This document shows, one piece after another, positions 2,850 to 49,799 of a DNA stretch of 64,000 nucleotides. This DNA is from Nautilus pompilius. Taxonomy: Eukaryota; Mollusca; Cephalopoda; Nautilida; Nautilidae. The stretch covers positions 1,860,001 through 1,924,000 of the forward strand of contig JACATO010000304.1 in NCBI GenBank assembly GCA_018389105.1. Reading direction: 5' to 3'. The position numbers were made by a program, and so were the translations under genes. The notes below the pieces were generated by a model. That model ran no database searches, was not told the origin of the DNA, and saw only the letters and a list, made by a program, of their open reading frames with translations. The stretch's first letter is position 1; every line of letters begins with the position of its first letter.

Positions 2850-3119
2850 TTGGGTGAGAGCATAGACAAGACCGGCACAGCACAGCTCTCAGAATTTATT
2901 CATGTTGTCAACGAAGCATGTCAAGTCTATCAAGAACTTGCATCACAAGTGTCCTTGCATGGCGGAACAACCGGGTCCGAAATTTTCAGTGCCTTCAAGA
3001 AAACAGTCGAGGATCTAAATTTATCATGGAATAAGTTAGTAGCCGTGACAACAGATTGTGCTCCCGCCATGATCGGTGAGACGAATGGCTTCATCGGATG
3101 TCTGAAGAGAGTCCCCTAG
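2850..3119 (+). pseudogene. hAT transposase, central catalytic segment
   Basis: An 89-codon open stretch carrying two hAT core landmarks. The first, usually Leu-Asp-Glu-Ser-Thr-Asp, reads LGESIDKTGTAQL here, so the first catalytic aspartate is replaced by glycine. The second, VTTDCAPAM, keeps its aspartate. A stop follows CLKRVP, and the coding sense resumes in other frames (HREFQSFLKDF near 3250). Upstream, an ESEAATIASYREI segment lies one frameshift away. This is a broken DNA transposase that cannot be active as read. Confidence 0.75.
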
Positions 3120-3507
3120 GACCGGATCTCGTAGCACAACTGAAAGATTACCACTGCATAATTCACCAGGAGGCATTGTGCAGAAAACAAAGATATAATG
3201 GACTTTGTTATATCTACTGTTAATTTTATCCGTGCAAGCTCAATAAATCACAGAGAATTCCAGTCTTTTCTGAAGGACTTCAGTGCGGGTTATGGCGACG
3301 TTCTCTGCCACAAAGAAGTGAGGTCGCTGAGCCGTGGTAATGTTTGAAACGATTTTTTGCTCTGCGAAATGCAATCAAGCTGTTTTTACAGCAGAGAGAA
3401 AGGGCACTTCAGTCAGAGAGAACGATGACTGGATTGCTGATTTTCCTTTTTGACAGACCTCGCTGGACACTTGAATGATCTCAACCTGAAAATGCAGGGG
3501 AGAGAAA

Positions 3508-4098
3508 TTGATTTGCGATTTGTTTGAGGCAGTCTGTGAATTTGAAATGAAGCTGAAACGTTTTGCAACCCAGTTCAATAAAGGGAATCTGACACACTTT
3601 CCAGCATTCCAAGACGCCTTTTCGCACAAGCATTACAACCGGGGCCATCACAGCTGCGTGCTTGAAGACCAGCAGCAGGCGTTCATCATCAGATTTGGGC
3701 AGTTCAGGAACCAACAGGCTGCGTTCAGACTATTTGCAGATCCATTATCTGTGGTTGCTGAACCTGTACCTGGTGACGTACATCTGGAAGTAATTGAACT
3801 CCAGTGCTCCGCAGTGATGAGGAGTAAGCACAGGGAGATGCCACTCCTACAATTCTATCAGGGCCTGGACCGGCATCTGTTTCCCAATATCACTGCGAAT
3901 GCACAGAAATGGATCTCAATGTTTAGAAGCACCTACATATGTGAACAGGTGTTTTCCTTAATGAAAATGACCAAGTCTCCCCTGCGAACAAGACTAACAG
4001 ATGATAACTTGCAGGCAGTGCTCAGAGTTGCGGCTACCCCATTGGAGCCCAACGTTAACCAGTTGGTGTCAGAGAATCGCTGCAATGTCTCCCACTGA
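3508..4098 (+). pseudogene. hAT transposase C-terminal half, open 196 codons
   Basis: This is the longest uninterrupted part of the hAT element. It covers the end of the alpha-helical insertion region (FEMKLKRFATQFNKGNLTHFP) and the C-terminal hAT dimerisation domain (FRSTYICEQVFSLM, then RLTDDNLQAVLRVA, and a final ENRCNVSH before the stop). The glutamate in CEQ matches the third acidic catalytic position of hAT enzymes. It begins in mid-protein, so the reading start is not a genuine translation start. Loss of the N-terminal half makes independent function unlikely. Confidence 0.75.
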
Positions 4099-4281: not shown

Positions 4282-5765
4282 GCTAGACGTTACCATCACA
4301 ATGTTTCCCTAATGCTCTTGATAATTACTTTAGTTGAAACCATAAGTATGATCGCTGGTGATTAGTTCTGAATAGTTACCATAAGTTTAATCCCTTCAAA
4401 AGTCAGCTACTTTACTGTCTCACAAAGGAACCAGTTGACTATGCGCTAAATATACGAAAGTGTTCAATAACTTTTCGCATTCTTTTGCCATCTGTAAAGT
4501 TACGAGACTGGAGTTTAGAATTTTCAGAATCGACGTTAATCGATTTCTGACTCAAAGGTGCCATAGTCTTTTAGCGTTAGCTGTCCTCTTTGTTGGCTTT
4601 TGATGTTATTATTGTTTTAAAAATAACTCCATGAAAAATTCAACTCTCTTTTTTTTTTACTTTTCTGAAAAACACACAAAAAATAATTGTTAGAAATAAT
4701 TCATAGTTTTCCTAGCTGTACCATTAAGAAACTGCGCTTCTCCTGGCTTTAGAAAATGTAGATTCTGCTTCCCATAATTTCATGATAAAAAATATAGATC
4801 CCAATTCGTGTTAATCCACAGCTAAAAAATCTGGTTCCTGACTGATAATGGTCGATGGGTTATAAAATTTACTTACGGTTGCAGAGACTCCGTCTACCCA
4901 AGAACCCCTCGTCCGGATTATTCTGACGGTAGGGTTCGTAATCTCCTGGTAAGGAAATGTACACCGACGCTGATTCTGTAGCTTTCGGGAAGATACAGTT
5001 GTTGAGAAAATGAGAACCAGCTCTTTTTTTGCCGATAAATCCTGAGTTTAGAAATGGGAATCCTCATCATGGATGCACTTTTGCCGTCACATCTACCCAC
5101 TAAATTTGAGAATAAAAAGGAAAATGCTTGATCATGTTAAAAAAAAAACAAAAACAAACTCCTTTCCGGGCGGCTAGTGTCTTGGTTAAGTCAACACGAG
5201 CAGCCATCACGTTCTCGGCCATTAAAATGGTCGTTTTAAACTGAAGCAAGCGATCAAAGATGATCTCTCATCAGACCTGCTTTCACTGAAGCAGACGTTC
5301 GCTCTCCTCTTATTTTATATAAAAGGGATGGCAGACGCAGTGACGCAACGTTATTCTTTAAAGATTTCTCTTTTGATTGGCTTATAAAACACAAACTCGA
5401 GGGTCCGGGCCCTTTTCCTAAAATAATTTTAAAACATAAAATGGAAAATGTAAACTTCAAGATTTCAAATAGCAGCGTAACTAAAACAAATACCAGGCGT
5501 TCAGTAAAATAGGCACAAGGGCCTCCTCGCGCTCCCTGTATACAAGATTTGCTCTTTCTTTATCCAAAGGATCCTGGATTATTACTACACCATTTTACTG
5601 CATTTTTTAAATTTGGAGCTTTCCCATTTGCCCTTTCTCAAACATCAAGTCTACATATCATCCATAAACTACACCCATCATCATCTCTTTGTGATGTTAA
5701 AATTACTTTTGCTGGTTATAATGTTATAATTTCTATTTGAAACTGAAACAAAATTTTTAATAACT
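4282..5765. other. No gene recognised
   Basis: Moderately AT-rich DNA with only short open frames on both strands. I see no transposon ends, coding motifs or RNA gene. It separates the hAT element from the start of the first Polinton-like relic. Confidence 0.5.
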
Positions 5766-5769
5766 AAAA

Positions 5770-6960
5770 AAAAAATCCTTTTTCAACTATTTTATATCCA
5801 GGTGAAACAGTTATAAAACACGAATATAACGTCTGAAAACTACTTCCTTTAATATATGATTCTTTTCTTAAATCACGATGCACAATACTAGAATTGATGA
5901 AATATCAAATGAATTATCACCTTCATTATAACCAAAAGATAAAATCTTAGCGCTAAATTCTAATAGATTTAAAAAAATATATTCTCTGGAGTAAAATAAA
6001 CTTCATAGTTAAACTAATAATGATGATTTTAAAATAGCAGAATTAGCTTCAATGGCCTATATTATTCTTTATTCTCTGGATCCAAGTGATTGTTAATTTT
6101 CATCTCTCTTTGAATTTCACCGCTAGTTTGTGCGAGTTCTTACAAATATGTACCTAGATTTATTGCTGTCTATGTAGTTCGGTTATCAGCACTATATTTA
6201 AAGATATTATTTCTATTACTAACATATGAAGAAATATGTCTCAAGATTAATCAGATCAATATCATAATGTTTTATAGAATCTAAATTTAATGTTCGATAA
6301 TCATTTTTGAAATTTGCAGTCTTTGATGATAAAACAAAATTATGAGAATCTTTTGGTCCTAAGCTTTTTGCCATTTTATTAATTTTAATTATATTTTTAT
6401 TATTTTTATGCTATACTTTTATTGTAACATTTATAATGTTTGAGAAATAGTTTTATCTATTACATTTAATTTAAATAATTGATCAGCAATTGCATTTATT
6501 TATAAAGACATTATTATTTTGATATTAAAAGTAAACTAAATCTTTCAATTAACTGATTTGTATCTGAGATGGAAATTTTGACTTTTTCACCGTCACCAAA
6601 ATAGAGATGTCTCATATTCTGCAGTTTAAATTATCTTAGTCTAGATTAATCTTTTGTTGGATTTTTAATAATTACTTTTCGTCTTAATTCTAGAGCAATA
6701 TATTTGTTCCATTCGTAATCTTTACTTAACTTAATTTATTTTGCGCAGTATCTTCTTCAGTAAGAATATTTTAACTAGTTCTGGTTTAGTTAAGTTCACG
6801 TAAACCAGATTGGTGCAAAATTTACAGTCCTTTGCAACATTAAGCTTCTTATAAATTATTTTGATGTTAGATGATACAATTAAATATTTGTTAGATTCTA
6901 ATTTTTGTAAAAAAAATGCAGACAAAGTGATGATTCGTAAAAAACAATATAATCTACTGC
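5770..6960 (-). pseudogene. Polinton-associated virion-type protein, decayed (copy A)
   Basis: The minus strand from about 6960 down to 5770 encodes, across several frames, a protein also present in copy B. Recognisable stretches are NNIFKYSADN (about 6205), SGEIQREMKINNHLDPENKE (6067-6124), GYNEGDNSFDISS (5896-5933) and VSPGYKIVEK (about 5780-5805). This motif order matches a protein I have seen in Polinton-like elements of invertebrates, probably structural, though its precise role is unknown to me. Upstream, a clear stretch around 6731-6925 is open for 64 codons. Stops and frameshifts throughout mean it is dead. One in-frame stop at 6646-6648 is shared with copy B. Confidence 0.55.
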
Positions 6961-7379
6961 ATTTGCATCTACTTCAATTTAAGGACTGCTATCAGCTTTT
7001 AAAGGTAAACTGAAGATATTGAGAATGGACCAGGTGAATCCAACATTTCCGAAGACTCTACAAGAGATTTTTCTACTAATGGTGGAATTTCTTAGATGTT
7101 AAAGGTACCACTTATAAACCTTGAGTAGGCGAAGTAAGTGACGGCTGCATGTTTGTATTTATAATTGGCTAAAATAAATTAGTTTCTTTTTTGGTATAAA
7201 AATTATGCTCATCTATTTTTTCATCAAGAAACGTTCGTTATTTTTTTAAATATGACATTAAATTCTTAAATTGTTTAGCTCGTCTTTTTAGTTTTTATTT
7301 TATAAAACAACATTTAATGTATATATAAATCGACATTATTTAACGATATAAACAAAGATTAATAAATTCCTTAAAAATT

Positions 7380-7860
7380 TACGATGCTTTTTTATTCTAT
7401 TTATCAAATGATTTATCTATAACTGCAAACCCATTGGTTGGTTTTCGATATTCTACTGTTAAAAATCTAAATTCGTCAAAATTCATATCTTTACTAACCA
7501 AATCATCACAAAAATTGTGGAAATCATTTTAAATAATGGAAATAAAATAATTACTTTGATGGTTTATCTGGGAAGTTTGTGGCAGTTCTGAAAAATATTT
7601 AAAAGGTCGACCTCTAATATAAAAAGGCTCGGAGTTTATTTGATTTTTAAGGTTATAGAAAATGATTAAAATATGTAAAATTGGAATCAATCGCTTTTTG
7701 GATCAAAAATATAATTTTGGTCTTCAAAGTATTATACACTTATTCCATATTCGTTTTTAAATCCCGCTCCTGTTATTTTCAAACGTTTAGTAGATCTAAA
7801 TTTAAACTCTAATGCATTTTCATTTTCAGAAGAGTTTATAATGTTTTTTATTCACTTATT
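7380..7860 (-). pseudogene. Unidentified decayed protein segment in copy A
   Basis: The minus strand reads almost without interruption through RLKITGAGFKNEYGISV (about 7740-7790), then FYIRGRPFKYFSELPQ and FHNFCDDLVSKDMNFDEF, with an FAVIDKSFDK end near 7400. The coherence of the frame, broken by only a few stops, shows a former gene of the same element. It could be the N-terminal domain of the polymerase, or another Polinton protein. I do not recognise it firmly. Confidence 0.4.
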
Positions 7861-8059
7861 TTAATGTTTATGTAAAGATTTTCCAAAATACATAATCTAG
7901 AATGGTCTGAAAAACTGAAATCTAATAACATATCCATAAGTAGAATAGTTTTAATATATCGACTTCTCTTATAATCAATCCACATTTGTTTCTAGCTAAT
8001 AAAAACAATGATCTTCACCGTTATCATTTTAATAATATGTTTTAAATTCATTAATTTAT

Positions 8060-8265
8060 AAAAGGTTACTACGTTTTACTTCATCTTTCGTATTTCTCTG
8101 CAAAAGTAGGACTATCAGATATAGCAGAATCTTCAAAATATTCATAATGATGAGATTCAAATTTATCATCTTTAACTGTAAACTTCTGGGTTATCTGCAT
8201 TCTCAGACAATTCAGATTCATACTCACATTTGTACTCATCTTTTATAGTAGCTCAACTAAGTTTT
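8060..8265 (-). pseudogene. Acidic N-terminal segment of a decayed element gene
   Basis: The minus strand encodes two joined acidic stretches with one frameshift between them: an EYKCEYESELSENADNPE part and a KFESHHYEYFEDSAISDSP part. Both are rich in Glu, Asp and Ser, as in flexible N-terminal regions. It reads into the copy A relic toward lower coordinates. No function is assigned. Confidence 0.4.
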
Positions 8266-9048: not shown

Positions 9049-10318
9049 TACGAGGTCCGTCGAAAAAGTATCCGACCTTAGGCTTGGAAAAAATTACTTA
9101 CTTAGTGGGTTCATTTGCTAATCCCCTTCGAAGTAGGCCCCTTATGCCTCCACACACTTCCCAGCGATCTTTCCACTGTTCGAAGCACGTCTGGAATGCT
9201 TCTTCCGGAATGGCTCTCAGCTCCGCACGATGGCCTCTCGGCTCTCAAAGCGGGAACCTTTCGGTGGCATCTTCATTTTTGGGAACAACCAAAAGTCAGA
9301 AGGAGCCATGTCTGGAGAGTAGGGAGCCTGGCGAATGAGCGAAATGCCTTTCAAAGAAATCTTGGATCAGCTGAGACGAATGAGCCGGGGCGCTGTCATG
9401 ATGCAGCTGCCAGTTTTGCAAGGCCCACAGATCCGGTCTCTCGAGTCAAACCGCATCACGAAGACATCGGAGGACTTCCTGATAGTACTCCTTTGTAACT
9501 GTTTGTCTTCTGTGCATATTCGTGATGCACAACACCTCGGTAGTTGAAGAAAACAGTCAGCATCACCTTGATTTTGCTCCGGACCTGACGTTGGGTGCTT
9601 CCACTGTGATGACTGAGCTTTGGTTTCCGGGTTGTGCTCATATACCCATGTCTCATCTCCAGGAATTCAGGATCCCTGTTGGCAGTATCCAGCAGGTCCT
9701 GCGCAACCTCAAGACGAAGTTGTTGTTGTTCCTGAGAAAGCAGCTTGGGCACAAATTTCGCTGCCACTCTGCGCGAGCCCAAATCCTCCTTTAAAATTGC
9801 ATGTGCAGAATCTTTACTGATCCCAACCTCGTCACCAATTTCCCGCACCGTCAAACGACGATCCTCCATTATCAAGGTTCGCACTTTCTCGATAACAACT
9901 GCATTGCAGCTTGTTGATGGCCTCCCGGAACGCTGGTCACTCTCCAGCGATGTGCAGCCATCTTTGAACCTGTTGTGCCATTCTTTTATTTGGGTAACAC
10001 CCATGGCATCGTCACCAAAAGCCTGTTGGATTTTGCGAATTGTTTCTGCTTGGGTATCTCCAAGCTTTTGGCAAAACTTGATGCAAGATCGTTGCTCCAC
10101 ACGTTCCATCATCACGGGCGAAATGAAAATGCGACGAGTAGGTAGTACAGCACCTCACACGCTGGCTGCCTGACAGCGACTGACGCATCCAGCAAGCCCT
10201 CCAAAACCACGCATGCGCATGAAGGCATGTGACTCCACTATGCACACTTTTGCCTCCTTAACGTCATTGCTTCCCACGAGAGAAAATAAAGTCGGATCCT
10301 TTTTCGACAGACCTCGTA
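9049..10318 (-). mobile_element. mariner transposon, about 1.27 kb, with TIRs and TA duplication
   Basis: The element proper spans 9051-10316 and is flanked by TA on both sides. Its terminal inverted repeats, starting CGAGGTCYGTCGAAAAAG at each end, match at about 27 of 30 positions. Length, TA target and encoded protein are all typical of mariner. It sits inside the AT-rich Polinton-like relic, so it inserted later. The transposase lies on the minus strand and is frameshifted. The high TIR identity indicates a fairly young but already inactive copy. Confidence 0.93.
9120..10115 (-). pseudogene. mariner transposase, frameshifted (DD34D type)
   Basis: The first 150 or so residues are in one frame: a paired-like DNA-binding region (MERVEQRSCIKFC, KEWHNRFKDG, RSGRPSTS, LTVREIGDEVGIS) followed by KFVPKLLSQEQ. 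A small deletion after DPEFLE then shifts the frame. The DETWVYEHNPETKAQS segment holding the first catalytic Asp is readable only in the next frame. The second Asp motif (LHHDSAPAH) and third (YSPDMAPSDFWLF) lie in further frames nearer 9300-9400. All catalytic residues are thus visible in the DNA but not in one protein. Expected family length is about 345 residues. Confidence 0.9.
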
Positions 10319-25049: not shown

Positions 25050-25639
25050 TAAATATTTGTAAAATATTGCTGTTTCCTTATTCCAATATACTAATATTGT
25101 ATATTAAAATACTTATATAACTGACTGCGTTTTACAGTGATAGTATTTTTAAATCTAGATTACTCAGCAAACTTGAAAAACTGAATGAGTGTCAAATGGG
25201 ATAAAAGTGGCTTAGACCTAATTATCAGGCACCGCAAATCTAGTCTAATTTGTCATGACAAGAGTCAAAATGGAAATCTGGCCATAAAATGGTTATTTCA
25301 TTGTGAAGTTAAAATTATTTTTCTAGTTTTTAAAATCTCTTTGACATTGAACCAAAATCGTTCAAATACTTGTAAGAATAAACTGAAATACTAAAATGCT
25401 AATATTTAAAGATGAAAAATGTTCACTGCATGGGATATTTTAAAATAAGGGCATACAAATTCTCTTTCAATTTTTACTTATGTAGTGTGAATGACAGTCT
25501 ACCATGAATTAATAAGCTATTTGAATATATTAGTATAACTGCTAATCCCATTTGCATATCTACATTTTAAACGTTTTTACTAGTAATATTCCAAGCAGTA
25601 AAATAATATAGTGTTGTTTTCAATTTTAAACTAATCATA

Positions 25640-26350
25640 ATTTCCATCTCTGGATGATGGAGATTCTATATCTGTAATATATTTTTTGTTTCACATCTAT
25701 GTTACCTTTCATGCTAAAAGAATTGTTAGTTTTAAATATTTTGCATATCCAGCTTGTTTATCAAGAAATTTATTATAAATATAAGTTTTATTTGCAATTC
25801 TTTACTGTTTGAATTTATATTATCTTCTGAGTCTAGTGTAAGAACATTTGTTAAACTATCATCTAGATATTTTTAAATTATCAGCAGCATTATTATTAAT
25901 TAGCTCAGCTAGATTAATATTTCATTACTCATAATTCCTCTAACTTTTTATCTAATGTTAGATCAAAAGTTTGTGTTTCAAATAATTTAGTACTGTCTTG
26001 AAATTCAAACTGTTTGATATTATGTTGATAACCAATTAAACATAAAATATATATCTATTTCTTTGATTTTTCGCAATCATTCTAACTTTTAAAACTTTAG
26101 ATTAAAAGCGTTGGTTTATTAATTGGTTCATTACCTTTTTATCAAAATAAGCCAGTGTTATATTACTCGCTTAAAAAATCTTCTGAAACACTAATCGGTA
26201 TTTTGCTTTTATCACCAATAATAGTAATTAGATTGTCATTATATTCATATGTCTTAACTTCGCGACATAGAAATCAGTGATTAAGCATATTTTTATTATT
26301 TGAAGCATCATTATCTCTTGGCTTTTCTGAGCTATTAATCTTTTTCTTTT
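25640..26350 (-). pseudogene. Unidentified element gene remnants
   Basis: From about 26340 down to 26170 the minus strand reads INSSEKPRDNDASNNKNMLN and then CREVKTYEYNDNLITIIGDK with KIPISVSEDFLSE. From about 26040 to 25640 it reads LIGYQHNIKQFEFQDSTKLF, TFDLTLDKKLEEL, LAELINNNAADNLKIS and LTLDSEDNINSNSKELQ in neighbouring frames. These are two or more former genes of copy B. No function is assigned. Confidence 0.4.
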
Positions 26351-27329
26351 TCAAATATTAATATCTTAGTAAATAAGCAGTATGACTATTATAACTTATA
26401 TATTTAAATTTCATACCTATCTTGTGCTGAAGAAAATCACTGTTTGTAAAAATTTTTTTACTGTTTTGTTAAAAGCTTTAAATTTTGAACTAACAATTCA
26501 ATTTTTAAATCTACGTGATTTTTATACAAACTAGAAATGTTACTTTAAACTTTACATTTTTACTTGTTACTGAATGAACCATTGTGACATGACACCTGTA
26601 TCAGGAATTTATTTTCATTAAAAGCTTAAGTTCCACTAAGTTAACAGGCTGAGAACTTCCAGAATCACATTCTATCGAAAATGTTTTGATTTACTGCGCT
26701 GAATTATCTACATATTTTGTTAATAGTTATAATTTTATCATCATTTGGATTTTAATCTTTACTGATTAAACTTGTACAATCTCGTTTTTAAAAATTCACG
26801 TTTACACGAGAATATACTGATGAAATATCTTTTTTTAACTAAAATCAATTTAATACTTAAAATGAATAACAGTTTTTATTTATAAAGTTAAACCATTTCT
26901 TCGTGTACAATTTTGATTTTAGAGAACCATTACATGAAATTATATAATCAAAAGTTTAGCATAACTTTTCATTAGATTTTTAAATATTTTCTCTTTATTG
27001 TAATTTCAATTTCCTTGATAATATATTTATTATTAAAAATGTGAACCAAATGTATTAGTGATAATGGATGACATTATAAGTGGTGAAAAGGGCAAAAATG
27101 TAACGCTACATGGAAGTGAAATAGAAATAATGCCAATTATATAAATTAACTTACTACATTTGTTTTTTACTTTTTTACTTAATTAGCTCTTCATAATTCT
27201 GAATCTGTTGTTTTTATATTATCTCAGCTGTAATTAATTTATTTCACAAGGAACAATAATACTAAATTTTATATTTACAATATAACCATCTACGATTATC
27301 TAGAAATTTAGTTTTATTTATCACTTTTA

Positions 27330-27720
27330 ATATATTCATTTAATACGCTTGATATGTCGCTTTGAAAAAATTAATTGCCTGTTTATACATTTTTATTTCT
27401 TTTATTCTTTCAGAAAATTCAGAAATATATTGTAAATATAACTGACCCCAAGTTAAACTACTTCTATTTTGAATGTTAAATTTGTGGTCACGCGTTCATC
27501 AGATTTTTATTTTTAATTTGATTATTTGATTATAATAAACTAAAAGAATCGTCATAATAAGCGTTTTATTAATTTTATTCCAGAAATTTCAAAGTGTACC
27601 AAAATTTTAAACTTAATTTAAAATTAAACACCATATTTTACTTTACTGAGTTTACTAGGAATAGTATTTTTTCTAAAAGCATCACTGAAATTGCTCAATT
27701 TTCTACCATATTTGTTTATT
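27330..27720 (-). pseudogene. Unidentified element gene remnant
   Basis: The minus strand reads NKYGRKLSNFSDAFRKNTIP and KLSKVKYGV near 27640-27720, and then SSLTWGQLYLQYISEFSERI and KEIKMYKQAINFFKATYQAY near 27350-27460. Frames this long with balanced composition are unlikely by chance in such AT-rich DNA. A capsid-type or DNA-processing protein of the element is possible, but no motif decides this. Confidence 0.35.
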
Positions 27721-28059
27721 TTGTAATGAATTAATGGTATATTACTTTTAAAATAGCGTCATTGGTAATTGTATAAAGTGAATTAGTTCCAAGTACTAAA
27801 TCTGCTTTTACAAATTTTTCCCCCTATTTCAAACACCTCTAAGCAAATATCTGTTATTTTTTTATTAATTTAAGTATATATCACCTGTAATATTTTCTAA
27901 CCTTTACATCTACAACCACTTCCACTTTTTAAATGTAGAACATTTCCTGAAGTATTTTATTTATCAACATGAGCTATACTTTGAAGAAAAACTTTTACTA
28001 TTGCACCGAAAGATGGCAGAGTAGTTTTCGTAATATTCAATAGTGTCGGTAAGATAACA

Positions 28060-29160
28060 CAAAGAAATCTGACAACGTTTTCACTTTTAATTACACGTTA
28101 TATATCTTTATTAAAAATCCATTAAATCTAGATGAATCATTTGTTTGGAATTTTGCTATAAGACTGTCAATAAATTCTATTAAATATTCGGTTTGATTAT
28201 AACTACAGCAGAAAGTAGTTTAGTTAAAATGCTAATTCTTATTTGATTCATTTGTGACGTACTAATTTTTCGATCAGAACCATTAACTTTTAAACTATAT
28301 TTTTTCCGTTTTATCAGACAAAAATGGCTACAGAAACCTGAGTATTTCCAGAACGAATTTATTTTAAGGTAACTTTGTGTTTTACGTTAGCTAGTCTATA
28401 TTTAGTTTTCTGATTGTATATTTACATCTTACATGAAAAATTACCAAAGAGTAAAATTCTTTTAACTCAATTTGTGATATTTAATTATCTCAAAAAATAT
28501 CAACTGTTCGAAAAAAATTTATGTTAAAACGTTCGTCATTTTTGTAAATTAGACTCTAGTGATTTCTTCCAAAATCCAAATTTATATTAAAACCAGGATA
28601 CTTGTCAATGTTCAGAAAAAAATAAGCATTAAATTGAAAAGTTATCCAATGCAGAAGCATTTGCTTTATGATTATTAACTTAAGAGGTTTTAAATCCCAA
28701 AACAGCATATTTAGGGTTTTTCTGTTCTTGATATAATAGTCAGCATCCAATTGAAATTTATATCTAGTACAACTGATATTGAATCAACATAGCCAATATC
28801 ATATTACTTTACTTTCAAGCATGTTAACAAAAATCAGTTTTTCACTAGACGACTTTACGCGAAAAATATACAGCGGTATTTTTTATTAAACTAATTTTCC
28901 AAATATCAACTTCGTTTGCTTGGTATTTTTTATTAAACTAATTTTCCAAATATCAACTTCGTTTGCTTCATAAAGTATTTTTTATATTATCTTCACAATA
29001 AGTGAGCTATAGGAATAAAAAAAACTAAAATTATCCCTAAGACTTGATTTTTCTATTATTTAATCATGCATTGCTTTAAATTCTAAACTTGCACCTGCAG
29101 CTACTAGATTTGCGTTTTTAAGTTTGTTCGACTATAATCAAAGCATTTTTTTAAATCTCG
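28060..29160 (-). pseudogene. Unidentified element gene remnants
   Basis: Two coherent minus-strand stretches occur. Near 29040-29140 the frame reads NANLVAAGASLEFKAMHD. Near 28200-28340 it reads KRKKYSLKVNGSDRKISTSQ and then MNQIRISILTKLLSAVV. Between them lies a 47-bp tandem duplication and a 64-codon open frame at 28556-28750. The Lys/Asn/Ile-rich composition matches the rest of copy B. I do not recognise the proteins. Confidence 0.35.
28875..28968. repeat. 47-bp perfect tandem duplication
   Basis: The unit at 28875-28921, beginning GGTATTTTTTATTAAACTAA, is repeated immediately at 28922-28968 without differences. Since 47 is not a multiple of three it shifts the decayed minus-strand frame. 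The perfect identity inside an otherwise strongly decayed relic means the duplication is much younger than the relic. Confidence 0.97.
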
Positions 29161-29199
29161 AAAAGACAACTTATTTTCTTTACAACACTCCTTTGATAA

Positions 29200-30360
29200 T
29201 AAACTGTATATTTTCCCGACCAATTAATATCTCATTAAAACGTGGAATAGATGAATATAACGGTTGAAAAATGACTCTTAATATATTATCTTTTTGTTAA
29301 ATCACACTGCACAAGAATCCACTTTCGTTATAAACAAGATAAAATTGCAAGGTAAATATTAATGAAGTTCTTAAACAATACCTAGTTCCTAGTTAGAATA
29401 ATAACGTTAGATTTGAGGAAACTATATTTAGCTTTAATTGTAATATAATAGCATTCATTGTTTTAAACTCAATTATTGTTATTTTTATCTCTCTTTTAAT
29501 TTTACTATTAGTTTATGTGAATTCATAAAAATCTGTCTAGATTTATTATTTGTTGTTCTGGATAGTTCCATTATCAATGCTATATTTAAAAATATTATTT
29601 GTATCAATATTACTTAAAAAAATAACGAGTCTCATTGTTTTGTAAAATCTAAATTTGGTGTTGGATAAAAATTTGTTTAAAAATTTTTAGTTTTGATGAT
29701 AAAACAAAACTGAGAATTTTTTGTTTTTAGCTCTGCTGCTATTTCAGTGTTTTTTACTATTTTATTAAATAGTTCTTCAAGCAGTCATGGTGCTTTAAAA
29801 ATCGGTTTTAGCTACTACATTATCTTCAGAAAATTTCTCAGCAATTGCGTTATTTCATTATAAACTTTATTATTTTCAATTTTTTTCTTATGCTAAAAAT
29901 AGGATAAGTTTTTCAATTAATTAAGTTAGATCTAAGAAAAAACTTCGGCTACTGTACTTCAAATATAGTTGTCTCGTGCTCTGTACCAGCCGTCTTATTT
30001 CAGATTAATCTTTTGCTGGACTTTTCATAATTTCTTTTCGCCTTAACCGAGGAGCAGTATGATTGTACCATTTCTAATTCATGTTTTCTGTTAACCATTG
30101 TTGTGGTAAATAGGCTCACTGTATACCAGAAATGTAGCATAAATTTGAATATATTCTTCAGTAAGAAAATGTTTGTCTGATTTTGTTTTTAGTTAAAAGT
30201 TTCCATAAACTAGGAATTGAGATATGCTTATGGTTATTATTATCAATGTCAAGCTTATTAGATATTACTTTTTTGGTAGTTATTCTAATTGATTTTTTAC
30301 ATTTTAAATATTTAAAGTAAATGAAGACTGATTATCCTCAGAAGCTGCATCTATAATTAA
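29200..30360 (-). pseudogene. Polinton-associated virion-type protein, decayed (copy B)
   Basis: This is the counterpart of 5770-6960. Matching stretches include KSPAKD-(stop)-SEIRRLVQST (about 29990-30030), NSQFCFIIKTKNF (about 29690-29730) and NNIFKYSIDNGT (about 29575-29605). Copy A and copy B align colinearly over roughly 1.1 kb with substitutions and indels, and the homology is clearest at protein level on the minus strand. It lies directly downstream of the polymerase remnant, which supports a Polinton-type gene cluster. Function of the protein is not established here. Confidence 0.55.
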
Positions 30361-30629
30361 TTTTTGTCTGCTGTCAGTTATTAATAGTGGAGCGATTGAA
30401 AATATTGTTGATAAAACAAGTAAATTCATTCAGGTTTCTACTTCTACCGGTATTACTTTTGGAGACGTTAAAGTTATGTTTCGAAGACTAAATGTAGCCG
30501 ATAAAGCTACTTATTTTTCTAATGTTTGTAATTTAATAGAGTCCTTTTAGGTACATCTTTCATAATTATATAAATTATGAAAAATTACATGTGATTTGGA
30601 TAATTAAAAGTTAGATTACATTTATTATG

Positions 30630-31040
30630 TGCATTACCCTAAATTTACCTGTGAGATGGCAATGCTCTCTTACTTTTTAATCTTAATCAATAAGGGGTTC
30701 TTCACGTACATGACAAGTAATAGGTTTCATAAATTCCATGTGTTCTTCACTTGTGTGGATTATTGGTCTTAAATTTGACAAAATAGCACAGATATATTAC
30801 TGACTCATCTCTTAATACATTCTATAAAGATTTTAGAAATATGTTCTGGTTTTTTGTGCTCTGAACAACAGACTCACATTTTCATAATCAGAAAAAATAT
30901 CAAAATGATAGATAATGCATGTTATAAAATGTGTGTTTTTAGTAAAAACGCTTTCAAAATCTGCGTATGATACAAAAGATACTTTAACTTTTCTAAACTA
31001 TTTTTGAAATCTAGTTTATCGTCAAGTATACATGGTAATT
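30630..31040 (-). pseudogene. Protein-primed DNA polymerase B, N-terminal/exonuclease remnant
   Basis: On the minus strand the segment LDFKNSLEKLK (about 31020) is followed, one frame away, by FVSYADFES (30950-30973), the Exo I motif with its Asp and Glu metal ligands. About 280 bases further on come EEHMEFMKPITCHVREEPL and VREHCHLTGKFR (30640-30670), the Cys/His block that follows the first exonuclease motif in Polinton-type polymerases. The order and spacing match the family. Exo II and III and the palm motifs were not recognised. Several stops and frameshifts mean the gene is dead. Confidence 0.75.
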
Positions 31041-31385
31041 TAGAAAGAATTGAGGTAATTTTAACATTTTCTTCCTTTTGTTTCATAAGATCTTTCTCTT
31101 ATCTTTATAATTAATAAAACTTTTGTTATATATATAATACATATCTTCTTCATAAAGTGATATTTGTAATTAATCTAGATAAATTACTTATTAAAATATA
31201 AAAAGCCTTTTCACCTGAAATAAGTAAGAACACTGCATACTTTCGTTATCTATTTTTGAGAATCTGTGTGGCACAACATTTGTATTTTCTTTATCATACT
31301 ATAAAAATTAACAAAGATATCACATCATTAACGTAAATTATTTCATTCACATTTAATTCATGTTCAAATGGTTATACTTTGCTAC

Positions 31386-31490
31386 TTTCTAAGGTGCAGC
31401 ACCGTGGTTCAGTGGTTAACCTGAAGTTCACAGCCCAGTCTGTGCAGGCTCGGGTTTGTTTACCTTTCTGCTATAATTTCTTCACCAGCC
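31386..31490 (+). repeat. Possible tRNA-derived SINE head
   Basis: The sequence AGCACCGTGGTTCAGTGGTT contains a box-A-like TGGTTCAGTGGTTAA. About 35 bases later GGCTCGGGTTTG is a weak box-B match. This arrangement resembles the RNA polymerase III promoter of a tRNA-derived SINE. Target duplications and a tail were not defined, and an intact tRNA fold was not found. Confidence 0.35.
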
Positions 31491-32206
31491 GGAAAAGAAA
31501 AGTTTTTTCCGGGTATTTCGGTTTTTTCTCATATCCTAAAATAAAAATTTAGCTTCTTTATAAAGAACACAGTTTTATCCTTTTAAAAAACATTTTTTTT
31601 TTTACTTTGTTCATATTCTTAACACTATTTTTCCTCCACAGCCCATAAAAGCTTTATGGGCAACTAAAGTTGCATAAGGACAAGTATTCAAAATTATAAA
31701 CACCCTATTTATTATACAATAAAAACAAAAATTTTCACCTTTTGTTTTTTCTTATTGATGATTTTTTAAAACTTTTTTCAAAAACCTATTATTATTGAGC
31801 TATTTTGTCTGCATTAAAAAACTTGTCTTAAAACTAAAGCTTAAAATTGGAAAGCTAAACATATTAAATAATATTTTTAAATTTTATTTCTTGTAATTTT
31901 TTTCAACTCTCGTTGTCTAAGGTCGCTCTAAATATCTTTAAAAAGATTTTAAATATGTCAAAATTTTTACTTTTGTCTATAAAAACTAAAAATAGCAGAC
32001 GAATAGTTTTACCCAGCCAATACAGGTATTTGTTGAGCTCATCAATGGTCCAGTCGAAATCTCTGCCTGTACCAAAATAACTGATTTGATGGTCGGTCTT
32101 TAAAGGAATGTCTCAGCAAATCTATCTTAAAAATAGAAATTGCCATTATTTATACGATGGTATTTCAGAAAGTAAAGAATTCATAAATAAGACAAGTGAC
32201 CAAGTA
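31491..32206. other. No gene recognised
   Basis: AT-rich DNA with poly-T and poly-A runs. It may hold the tail of the SINE-like sequence and of the mariner scrap that follows, but no boundary is visible. Confidence 0.35.
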
Positions 32207-32395
32207 TCATTTATTGAACATGGGCAAGAAGGTAAAAGAAATAGATGGAAGAAACATTCTGACCAGTCCAAAGTGCAGTCTGTTTAAAGAGTCGATGGTG
32301 GCTCGGACGCTGTGTGGTTTCGTATTGTCGTGTTGTAACATATGACAGTAATGAGACGTCTTGGTCGATCTTGATCCATCCTGGTATTTAACCAT
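32207..32395 (-). pseudogene. mariner-like transposase scrap
   Basis: A 62-codon minus-strand frame contains MLQHDNTKPHSVRATIDSL, matching the second catalytic Asp motif of mariner transposases (His-Asp-Asn-x-x-Pro-His). The following LVRMF and PSISFTFLPMF may be the decayed third motif. No TIRs were found. This is a different and older lineage from the element at 9051. Confidence 0.5.
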
Positions 32396-40088: not shown

Positions 40089-42558
40089 CAGTCGACCCCC
40101 GCGTAATCGCGGTTCGGCATTCGCGGCCCCGGTTATTCACGGAATTTTCCTTAGAACTTAACTAATAATTGTTCGTGGAAACCCCCGCATATTCGCGGAA
40201 TCGCAAATATCTTCCGCGATTTTTTAATGGCTTTTTTCGTGGCAATATACACTTTTTCACGTTTTTTAACGCTAAATTATTAATAACAATACAATTTACT
40301 AATTTTTTAATATAAATACTAACGTAAATTCAGCAAAATATCAATATAAAATAAATACTATTGGCTGGAGGTTTGGAAGTAGCCAATCCGAGAGCGTTAT
40401 TCATTTCTCCTCGCTGCTGATTGGCTGCTGCCCACGAGGCGCTGTCTCAGGCAGATGCAGCCCAGCATCATCCCAGTTTACCACGTGTAGCTGTCTCGAG
40501 TGTTTCTCTGAGTGTTGTGTTTTTCGCAGCGTGTTTCTTAAAGTCCTAAGATGCCGTCCAAACGCCCTGCACCTTCTGGCAATGAACCTAAGCGCCAGAA
40601 CAAGGTTATGACGCTCCAGGAGAAGGTACAACTGCTGGATATGCTCTGGGAAGGCAAAAAAGTTATGCCGCAGCAGGTCGCCATTATGGCGTCAACAAAA
40701 GCACTATACGATACATAAAGAATAACGAGGCAGCGATCAGGAGTACCGTAGCAGTAAGTTTCTGTGAAAGTGCCAAAATGGTAACGACAGTGAGAAATAA
40801 GCACATCGTGAGGATGGAATCTGCCTTGGTATTGTGGATCAGCGACTGCAAGAAAAAAACATCCCCTTGGACGGTAACATCATCCGCGAGAAAGTGCGGA
40901 AGTTACACCAGCAGTTCGCTACAGGAGACACCGAAGAACCACAACCAGGACCATCGACAGCACCGGAGCCTGAAGATTTTCAAGCCAGCAAGGGATGGTT
41001 TGACCGCTTCCAGAAACAGTTTAAAATAAAGTGTTTCTCTACATGGAGAGGCAGCATCTGCCGACAAAAAAGCCGCTGAGAAGTACCCCTAAACCTTCAG
41101 GCAGATCATCGAGGAGAAGGTATACAAGCCGCAACAGGTTTTCAATATGGACGAGACTGGCTTGTTCTGGAAGAAGATGCCTTCCAGAACGTACATCATG
41201 AAGGACGAAGCTAGAGTCCCAGGATTTAAGGCACAGAAGGACAGAGTGACGCTCATTATGTGTGGCAATGCTGCTGGCTTCATGATGAAACCAGGCCTCA
41301 TCTACAAGTCCGCGAACCCTAGGGCCCTCAAGAATAAGAATAAAAACCAGCTGCCTGTCCACTGGATGCACAACCCCAAGGCCTGGATTACAAAAATCCT
41401 AACTTCGAACTGGTTCCACCAATGCTTCATCCCTCAAGCCACGGAATATCACCACAACTTATGCATGGAATTCAAAGTGTTGCTCGTTATGGATAATGCT
41501 GGCGACCACCCTTTGGATTTGTATCACGAGGGAGTCCAGGTCGAGTTCCTGCCTGCCAACACCACCTCCCTCATCCAGCCTATGGATTAGGGCGTGATCC
41601 GTGCCTTCAAGGCACTTTACACTCGGAACTCTCTCCAACACCTTGTGGACGCAATGGACTCGGACGAGAATTTCACGTTAAAGGGGTATTGGTGTAAGTT
41701 CACGATCGCAACGAGCCTGTCAGTCATCCAAGCTGCTATTAGGGACATGAAAAAAGAAACCCTCAACGCATGCTGGAAGAAGATGTGGTCAGAGTGTGTC
41801 CACGACTACAAGGGCTTCTCACCTGAAGAAATTCAGCACGAGGCTGTCGACAAGGCGGTGAGACTGGCAAAGGTACTTGGTGGCGAAGGTTTTGACGACA
41901 TCACGCAAGATGAGGTCAACAACCTCATCGATGCCCACTCTGAACCCCTGACGGACGAGGATTTGTTGGAGTTAACGAGGTCTGCCAGCGAAGAGGAGGA
42001 AGCGACAGATGTAGAGCAAGAGGAGGAGGAGGAGGAGGGCCTGACACTGGAACGTTTGTCCGACCTTGACCTTATCAGGACAGCAAAGGAGATGCAAGGG
42101 AAGGCTGAACCATGGGATGCCTATATGGTTCGGTCTCTCCAATTTAAAAATGCCATCGATGCTGCCATGCAGACATATAAAACCCTCCTCACCACCACGA
42201 AGAAACAGCTTGAGCAACTCTCCATCACAATGTTCCTCAAGCCCACCAAGAAAGCCTTGCACGAAGATACGACTCCTCCTGAAGAAGAGGCGCCACCTAA
42301 GGAGCTGTGCAGTCATTATCTTCATCGTACTGCACAGCTTATTCATCATCATCTTCAATCAATATCATTCACTATTGGTGAGTACCCGTACATTTTACTG
42401 TATTTTTATTAAATTATTATTATATATTTTTTATTATATTTTACGTTATATTTTGACGTTTATAGGCATTTTTATGGACCACGTCCAATATTCGCGGTTT
42501 TTCACTCCCTCGCGCGGGCTCAAGGGACGTAACCCCCGCGAATACCGGGGGACAACTG
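40089..42558 (+). mobile_element. Tigger/pogo transposon, near full length
   Basis: About 2.47 kb bounded by terminal inverted repeats: the left end starts CAGTCGACCCCCGCG and the right end is the complement of CAGTTGTCCCCCGG. The right flank is TA and the left flank TG, so one base of the TA duplication has probably mutated. It encodes a Tigger (pogo family) transposase on the plus strand. It shares both ends with the 580-bp MITE at 19278. It is inactive through a frameshifted N-terminal region and one premature stop. Confidence 0.95.
40551..42412 (+). pseudogene. Tigger transposase (TIGD1-like), broken
   Basis: The start ATG at 40551 opens MPSKRPAPSGNEPKRQNKVM, a CENP-B-like N-terminus. 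Frameshifts follow near 40670 and again near 41050. The second helix-turn-helix (VRMESALVLWISD, then SKGWFDRFQ) is in other frames. From 41147 the DDE domain reads MDETGLFWKKMPSRTY (first Asp), VLLVMDNAGDHP (second Asp) and ANTTSLIQPMD (third Asp), then a TAG at 41588-41590 where the family has Gln. After the stop, 272 codons continue in frame with an acidic linker and a C-terminal end. The DDE residues survive, so decay is recent. Confidence 0.93.
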
Positions 42559-48060: not shown

Positions 48061-49799
48061 GAAAGTAGAACACAAACGTTCAAAGCGATCTCTGCTTACA
48101 GCTAACCAAACTCTCTTTCATGGATCGATGTAGCCCAAATGGGCAATGTCGCAGTAAAGAATGTTCTGATTCTGGATTAGAAAGCCTCCGCGCGTCAACG
48201 AACTCTCTTAAGATCGTTGGATCACATGCACTAAAGATTCTGGATTGGAAGACGTTTGAAAAAAGAGTAGAATTCTGAGATTAAGTTCAACAGGAATGTC
48301 AATGGATAGAAAATCTTTCCCAAAGGGAGTGTGCAAACTCTGTGGCAATGTTTTCTTCCACAACTCCTGTCATATATGGATTGGGAACGCAGCCCAATCC
48401 CACTGTCCACAACATTTTGATGCTCTAATGAAAACACTGACATTCACTCGATTTCGTAACCACATGGCTGCATTTATAAACAGTGAAGGAAAAAAAACGT
48501 AAACTTATAATACTGCTGGGAGTAAATTAACAAATTAACACGGTCCGCATACTGTTGTTTATCAGGGCCGCAGCGCGATAGTTTCTGGAAACTTAATCTC
48601 GTTACATTTTAGTAGATCTATTCTTCCATTGCCATAATCACAGTGACTATCCGGGTGGGCTTGTGTGTACTTAGCTCAGATAAACCATGAAGTCTACAAA
48701 CTTAAATTTTTTTGTGAAGGGATCAGATCGAGGTTTGACCTGACCCACAGTCATGGGTGGCTATATGCAACAGGGGAAAAGTGGTAGCACTATAAAAATA
48801 TAAGAATTACGAAAATCACGTCAGCATTGAGCGGATTTTCTCTGTTATATAACCTCAGAAATTGCATTAGACCAAAACGTAGACACTTTTGATGGCTGGA
48901 CATGAGTTATAATGGAACAATAAAGATAAAAATGAGTTAGATCTCCAGAGATTAAACGCATCTTCACCAGACATATTCTCTGATGTTCTACAAAACATTG
49001 CTACTAAGCACTTGGCAACCAGTGAGGTTCTGCAGTGAATCTCTTCCGAATTCTCGGGAGCTGAGCCAACTACAGCTTAACACTTTTGTGATGGAAAGAC
49101 TCGTCGTCTCTTATGGCGGCTATACACAAATTAAAGGTACTGACATTTCCACCTCTCTATGGAGTAAAAACAGAAACCAAACAAATAATTCACTATTAAG
49201 GCAGACAGGAATATACTTCACCATCTCGTCACTGCTTACAAAGCTGATAGAAGTGAATGTACACAAGATATCATGGCATGAGTCTATGAGTGTGTCAATT
49301 GCTCTTATATGCAAAAATATCTGTCCAAGGACTGGCAAAAAATCCATTTTAACTGGTAGGGTGACCCAAGGGTTGGGTTAGTCTACCAGATGTTACCCTT
49401 AATAGAATTGGTGATAGATGGATAAACTCTAGTGTTGCCACTTGGAGAACCTGCAACAGTAACGAACTTTGGTAAATGACGGATGCGTTTGTCGAACGTC
49501 CTTAATAAGGGAAGACTCTTTGAGAAGATCGATATTATTTTTGATCAGTATAGACAAACCTTAATCAGCGCTGGTAACAAAAAGAAACGTTCGGAACAAT
49601 TTCGTTTGCTAAGAAGAGTAGAGGAAGAAAGATAGCTCTGTACAAGTCTCCAGCGACTAGATCAATTTTCTATCCGTGCCTGCTAACAAAGCAAATCTAG
49701 CAGACTTTCATTCAAACCATCTGATCGCAGACAAAAAATACTGGTAGCTGCTGGTGGATTCTGGAGATAGGAAGAATTACAAACAACTAACCCTGATTT

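What the first reader, a model, noticed from the sequence alone, without database searches (positions are those of the whole stretch)
25050..31375. Ancient Polinton/Maverick-like relic carrying protein-primed polymerase motifs
Seen: a 6.3-kb AT-rich block that looks empty, but whose minus strand holds many coding-like stretches. They include a YADFES exonuclease motif (30950-30967) and a HCHLTGKFR block (30640-30668) in the order found in Polinton-type DNA polymerases. Known: these motifs belong to protein-primed type-B polymerases of Polintons and related viruses. Inferred: the whole block is one fossil virus-like element whose other genes (25.6-29 kb) may belong to a poorly described lineage.
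Basis: partly seen in the sequence, partly recalled or inferred. Interest (0 to 1): 0.8.

Follow-up and report, generated by a model that had tools for sequence, protein, structure and literature searches.

The report
Fossil Polinton virus, broken copy
This AT-rich stretch is the decayed remains of an ancient capsid-bearing DNA virus (a Polinton/Maverick) that inserted itself into the genome, one of many broken copies there, so it is a real but ordinary kind of genomic fossil.

Summary
The observation and the main interpretation hold. Searched piece by piece, without joining frames, the minus strand carries a colinear series of Polinton-type PolB matches at 31245-30550, including both reported motifs. 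The chain scores 30.8 bits; the maximum was 5.4 in 200 random sequences of like dinucleotide content and 3.0 in 15 other blocks of the window. The open question about 25.6-29 kb is partly answered: 29119-28430 is a double jelly-roll major capsid protein relic, identified through sibling copies that match PF21738. A penton-like gene (30350-29243) and a small gene (28386-27921) flank it; both names rest on position and recall. Siblings place one end near 25293 and carry the element to at least 32065, beyond the stated end. This copy lacks the polymerase C-half and a region that holds a P-loop piece in siblings. The 728-Mb genome holds many degraded copies: 45 capsid matches (40 with in-frame stops) and 39 polymerase matches (35 with stops), both lower bounds. 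A second, shorter relic lies at 5675-8062. It is a new member of a known kind.

The parts
25293..32065 (-). Whole relic as bounded by sibling copies (the finding gave 25050-31375)
   Evidence: Left edge: matches on C12 and C95 start at 25293; L030, L032, L034 and L055 begin close to the same place, with two faint similarities 30-60 bp further out, so the edge is good to some tens of bases. Right side: L039, L038 and L029 follow the window to 31911, 32037 and 32065. 4907 of 5937 bases of 25293-31229 are covered by at least one sibling alignment.
30550..31245 (-). Protein-primed PolB relic, profile positions 341-577, in six separate pieces
   Evidence: tblastn of an intact IMG/VR PolB (L041), residues 443-593 to 30994-30594, E 2.4e-6 in a database of the window and 32 loci; the second PolB tried (L042) gave no window hit
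30950..30967 (-). YADFES exonuclease motif (motif name recalled)
   Evidence: Piece 30836-30997, profile 417-440
30638..30664 (-). HCHLTGKFR block
   Evidence: Piece 30614-30676, KVREHCHLTGKFR, 12 of 13 residues identical to P0073
31246..32065 (-). Upstream (5') part of the element, presumed PolB N-terminal region; no credible profile hit
   Evidence: DNA matches in the same order to L029, L038, L039; spacing differs between copies
30351..30549 (.). Deletion junction: PolB from profile 578 on and the region behind it, roughly 3 kb in siblings L031 and L034, are missing here
   Evidence: Orders in L031, L034, L036
29243..30350 (-). Most repeated segment; gene just upstream of the capsid gene, penton (mCP)-like by position and recalled motif only
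   Evidence: 47 of 49 non-self matches start in or behind this part (40 of 294 candidates scored); profile A3 hits 29385-29462 E 0.0028 and 29289-29327 E 0.22, with hits outside the block between and above them; no hhalign support
28430..29119 (-). Double jelly-roll major capsid protein (MCP) relic
   Evidence: Sibling piece L047:1561-1926 matches PF21738 at 5.5e-11 and window 28785-28469 at 1.1e-9; profile A4 best hit 28559-28783 at 9.9e-5
28875..28968 (.). Perfect tandem duplication of 47 bp inside the MCP relic
27921..28386 (-). Small gene after the MCP, conserved among siblings; pX/pVI-like by recall only
   Evidence: Profile A2 best hit 28183-28386 E 0.0068; sibling pieces to 28207-27921; no Pfam match in the sibling pieces tried
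25293..27900 (-). Distal part of the element up to its terminus, genes unidentified
   Evidence: 59 non-self own-genome matches at 65-79% for 25250-27950 (40 of 303 candidates scored); sibling pieces hit the minus strand at 27677-26625 and 25872-25774
5675..8062 (-). Second relic of the same family: terminus 5686-5758, penton-like segment 5744-6975, ATPase-like segment 7086-8062

Best explanation
The block is an old, internally deleted and heavily mutated copy of a Polinton/Maverick-type element, an integrated double-stranded DNA virus with a protein-primed DNA polymerase and a double jelly-roll capsid. Shown: the order on the minus strand is PolB (N-half), a deletion, a conserved gene that I read as the penton, the MCP, a small gene, unnamed distal genes, terminus. 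Shown: many similarly broken copies lie in the same genome. Inferred from the family: the ancestor replicated by protein-primed synthesis, packaged itself in a capsid and integrated with a retroviral-type integrase; the copies then decayed. The window copy is taken to be inert.
For: Colinear PolB chain of 30.8 bits, reached by 0 of 200 Markov-generated sequences (maximum 5.4) and 0 of 15 other blocks (maximum 3.0) (the chaining rule was set). tblastn E 2.4e-6 with an intact environmental PolB. 14 other own-genome matches of the motif region at 66-78% identity. MCP through sibling pieces and PF21738: 32 of the 40 listed sibling-piece hits inside 28414-29119 are on the minus strand, the 8 on the plus strand being 1.9e-4 at best (L048 and L059 repeat the places of L031 and L032). 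PolB, penton-like segment and MCP in this order in L031, L034 and L040. In the genome 45 MCP matches, 44 over the cut-off, 40 with in-frame stops, and none in 14 control genomes; 39 PolB matches, 35 with stops.
Against: Pfam finds no polymerase or capsid family in the 10 window pieces given to it; its best match is unrelated, at 0.059. tblastn with the integrase, ATPase and capsid candidates of L041 and L042 gave no hit at 1e-3 in the window or the 32 loci searched. No pair of terminal inverted repeats was seen. PF00770 (adenovirus-type protease) has no match in the genome, nor in any control. The sibling pieces tried from the distal part match nothing named. Single PolB pieces are weak (best E 0.0046).
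Confidence: 0.95

Rival explanations
1. The block is a composite: a PolB relic (30.55-32.07 kb) and a separate capsid-gene relic (25.29-30.35 kb) from two insertions that lie side by side in one orientation.
For: The two parts meet at a gap (30549-30351), and none of the 12 sibling regions shows exactly this junction. L036 carries both parts with about 2.8 kb between them.
Against: L030, L031, L034, L036 and L040 have PolB and the 29.2-30.35 kb segment in the same order and orientation within 10 kb, so one internal deletion explains the window; low GC is continuous across the junction.
Confidence: 0.04
2. Host intron or AT-rich spacer with chance motifs.
For: No long ORF; no Pfam support in the window pieces tried; weak ORF-length excess.
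Against: Colinear chain against controls, tblastn, multi-copy siblings.
Confidence: 0.005
3. A relic of another carrier of protein-primed PolB (adenovirus, virophage, cytoplasmic linear plasmid or bidnavirus-like element) rather than a Polinton.
For: These share related polymerases (PMC11071308, passages; PMC4061559, start of abstract in a listing).
Against: A PF21738 capsid gene in the same element as a PolB with these motifs, and many chromosomal copies with a common terminus. That plasmids and bidnaviruses lack such a capsid gene is recalled. No tree was made.
Confidence: 0.02

Closest known systems
Polintons/Mavericks (Polintoviricetes), including animal adintoviruses
   Same: Protein-primed PolB, double jelly-roll MCP, a conserved gene just upstream of the MCP, many chromosomal copies. 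PMC4028283 (passages; [quoted passage not shown]
   Different: Window copy about 6.8 kb against the 15-20 kb given there; no intact gene; integrase, protease and inverted repeats not seen in what was searched.
IMG/VR contig IMGVR_UViG_3300028392_002905 (L041), Polinton-like, with open genes
   Same: PolB of the same family (window matches residues 443-593).
   Different: Its presumed capsid genes, which are named from recall and have no Pfam match, do not match the siblings' pieces. Presumed MCP and the ATPase (PF04665) lie 5' of PolB, whereas here MCP lies 3' of it.
Protein fossils of transposable elements in vertebrates (PMC9004415, search listing only)
   Same: [quoted passage not shown] the listing counts 24 mentions of Polinton.
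   Different: Vertebrate hosts by its title; not compared in detail.

Membership tests
[quoted passage not shown]
   the siblings' pieces together touch profile positions 252-1215 of 1252
Polinton/Maverick | Double jelly-roll major capsid protein | tested here: met
   Through siblings: PF21738 and window 29119-28430
Polinton/Maverick | Penton (minor capsid protein) | tested here: inconclusive
   Position upstream of the MCP fits; Pfam and hhalign against two recalled minor-capsid candidates give no support
Polinton/Maverick | FtsK/A32-type packaging ATPase | tested here: inconclusive
   Not in the block. Sibling L031:3107-3256 has a P-loop piece, best Pfam match nSTAND3 at 0.0019, below cut-off; tblastn with the L041 and L042 ATPases found nothing; the second relic shares this segment by DNA; name partly from recall
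Polinton/Maverick | Retroviral-type integrase | tested here: inconclusive
   tblastn with the L041 integrase gave no hit in the window and 32 loci, but the fetched regions hardly reach beyond the PolB 5' end; no rve profile search was made
Polinton/Maverick | Maturation protease | tested here: inconclusive
   PF00770: 0 matches in the genome and in 14 controls; the Ulp1-type family PF02902 was not tried
Polinton/Maverick | Terminal inverted repeats and target-site duplication (recalled as 6 bp) | tested here: inconclusive
   A common terminus near 25293 and 5686; no inverted partner within reach among the 40 scored of 289 candidates nor inside six sibling loci; duplication not tested

The most novel reading that the evidence does not exclude
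One capsid-bearing Polinton lineage, whose MCP and small capsid-side genes found no relative in two limited protein searches, was amplified to hundreds of copies in this host and then died out; the unnamed genes at 25.3-27.9 kb belong to no described family.
Probability: 0.25. Interest if true: 0.45.

Novelty: new member of a known kind. Interest (0 to 1): 0.3.

Why it matters
A block that looks empty to ordinary annotation can be resolved by searching its broken pieces apart and comparing sibling copies. It adds a large, decayed, capsid-bearing Polinton family in one host to the fossil record of DNA viruses. It changes no general view.

Tried and rejected
Pfam on ten window pieces gave nothing usable. 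A viral-contig scan with one PolB found no relative; the scan with an alignment found two. The scan with the MCP alignment had 31 pattern matches, none confirmed; the penton-like alignment had no stretch conserved enough. Protein searches with the piece after the MCP (2 candidates, none significant) and with an MCP piece (no candidate) found nothing; both are limited, because a piece does not find full-length relatives. Profile comparison of the penton-like pieces with two minor-capsid candidates and of the MCP pieces with the presumed L041 MCP failed. Inverted repeats in six sibling loci: none but a local palindrome in L034. ORF-length statistics are too weak to carry the case. Composite, chance and other-virus readings were considered and set low. 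The host was not identified.
Full report
Observation. The block is AT-rich (GC 0.23-0.27 over 26-32 kb) with edges near 25.0 and 32.1 kb. Both motifs are on the minus strand: YADFES at 30967-30950 and HCHLTGKFR at 30664-30638. Minus-strand open pieces of 30 aa or more are in excess (0 of 200 Markov-generated sequences reach the total), those of 50 aa or more are not, and the plus strand shows an excess at 40 aa.

Polymerase. A profile was made from the 85 proteins longer than 1100 aa among the 120 listed of 6419 hits to an IMG/VR PolB. It was searched against all 3420 six-frame pieces of the window, each by itself. Twelve hits reached E<=10. The best three and three more form one colinear series: profile 341-361 at 31245-31153, 417-440 at 30997-30836, 495-526 at 30796-30686, 536-549 at 30676-30614, 549-562 at 30638-30588, 566-577 at 30603-30550; five of the rest lie elsewhere and one overlaps on the plus strand. 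Single E-values are modest (best 0.0046). The chain scores 30.8 bits, against a maximum of 5.4 in 200 Markov-generated sequences and 3.0 in 15 other blocks; the chaining rule was set. tblastn with the L041 PolB gives 2.4e-6 over residues 443-593; the L042 PolB gives no window hit. The piece KVREHCHLTGKFR agrees with P0073 in 12 of 13 residues. Pfam missed all of it.

Own genome. The window lies in a genome of 727.6 Mb in 2558 contigs, unnamed. The motif region has 14 other matches at 66-78%; 28200-30600 has 294 first-look candidates, 40 scored; 25250-27950 has 303, 40 scored. These are overlapping views of one family and most candidates were not scored, so 'hundreds of copies' is an inference. 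Twelve 10-kb sibling regions (L029-L040), chosen by such matches, share DNA with the block in 12 of 12 cases. PolB profile hits at E<=0.3 occur in 9 of 12: L032 has only one at 0.087, and L033, L037 and L039 have none, though L039 shares the PolB DNA segment 30668-31020.

Order and gene identity. In L030, L031, L034, L036 and L040 PolB is followed on the same strand by the segment homologous to 30350-29243; in L031, L034 and L040 there follow segments homologous to parts of 29120-28328 and then of 28305-25784. A piece of L031 from the middle segment resembles PF21738, the double jelly-roll domain (1.6e-4, below cut-off). PF21738 gave 45 matches in the genome, 44 over the cut-off, best 2.1e-17, 40 of 45 with in-frame stops, and none in 14 control genomes. 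The piece L047:1561-1926 alone scores 5.5e-11 and aligns with window 28785-28469 at 1.1e-9. Sibling pieces hit 28414-29119 of the window 40 times, 32 times on the minus strand; the 8 plus-strand hits are weaker (1.9e-4 at best). So 29119-28430 is an MCP relic. A perfect 47-bp tandem duplication lies inside it.

Before the MCP, 30350-29243 is the most repeated segment: 47 of 49 non-self matches start at or behind 29243. Profile A3, built from sibling pieces, hits 29385-29462 (0.0028) and 29289-29327 (0.22), but also 48530-48592 (0.11), which I cannot explain. In Polintons the penton gene lies immediately upstream of the MCP or one gene away (PMC4028283, section 5). I recall motifs of this kind from Polinton penton proteins, but profile comparison gave nothing, against candidates that are themselves named from recall. 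The gene after the MCP (28386-27921) matches profile A2 (0.0068); its likeness to pX/pVI core proteins is recalled. Between PolB and the penton-like segment L031 has a P-loop piece (3107-3256, best Pfam 0.0019, below cut-off) that I read as the packaging ATPase, in part from recall; tblastn with two known ATPases of such contigs did not find it.

Extent. Copies share an edge that falls at 25293 in the window and at L030 8610, where 16 of the 39 non-self matches begin. Two faint similarities reach 30-60 bp further out. On the other side L039, L038 and L029 follow the window to 31911, 32037 and 32065, past the stated end. At 30549-30351 the window lacks PolB from profile 578 on and the region behind it, roughly 3 kb in L031 and L034.

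Second relic. The best window hit of profile A3 is at 5767-5904 (5.3e-5). The stretch 5675-8062 is a second, shorter copy in the same orientation: the terminus joins directly to the penton-like segment, then comes the ATPase-like segment. A mariner-like transposase relic (name recalled) lies at about 9.28-10.15 kb, with AT-rich DNA resuming at 10.5-11.5 kb, so the mariner may have landed in this relic; that was not tested.

Age. Over 19669 aligned columns (72 alignments at E<=1e-6, six loci left out as duplicates or viral contigs) the K80 distance to siblings is 0.32. It is biased low, since only alignable parts count, and it includes divergence before insertion. No clock rate is known for this host, so no date is given.

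Polymerase copies. P0040 gave 39 matches, 37 of 288 candidates scored; 35 of 39 have in-frame stops and the other four are short. No search for an open copy was made.

Literature. PMC4028283: passages and one section. PMC11071308: passages. All others named: listings only. PMC8502044 and PMC10748475 are not held.

Changes made on checking.

Noticed in passing
window 5675-8062 (perhaps to about 11500), minus strand: Second relic of the same Polinton family, internally deleted: terminus joined directly to the penton-like segment, then the ATPase-like segment.
   Followed up: partly
window 9278-10154, minus strand: Mariner-like transposase relic (name recalled) with a 232-aa open stretch, apparently nested in the AT-rich second relic.
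   Followed up: no
window 40592-42412, plus strand: Tigger/pogo-like DDE transposase pieces in three open stretches (recalled resemblance).
   Followed up: no
window 3490-4098, plus strand: 202-aa open stretch resembling a hAT/ZBED-type transposase (recalled resemblance).
   Followed up: no
window 32137-32219: Short segment with many 81-93% matches over the genome, a separate dispersed repeat outside the relic.
   Followed up: no
window 48530-48592, minus strand: Weak hit (E 0.11) of the penton-like profile A3 outside both relics; perhaps chance.
   Followed up: no
L017 2066-3478: Long open frames on both strands (up to 436 aa) beside a sibling segment, perhaps a tandem repeat array.
   Followed up: no
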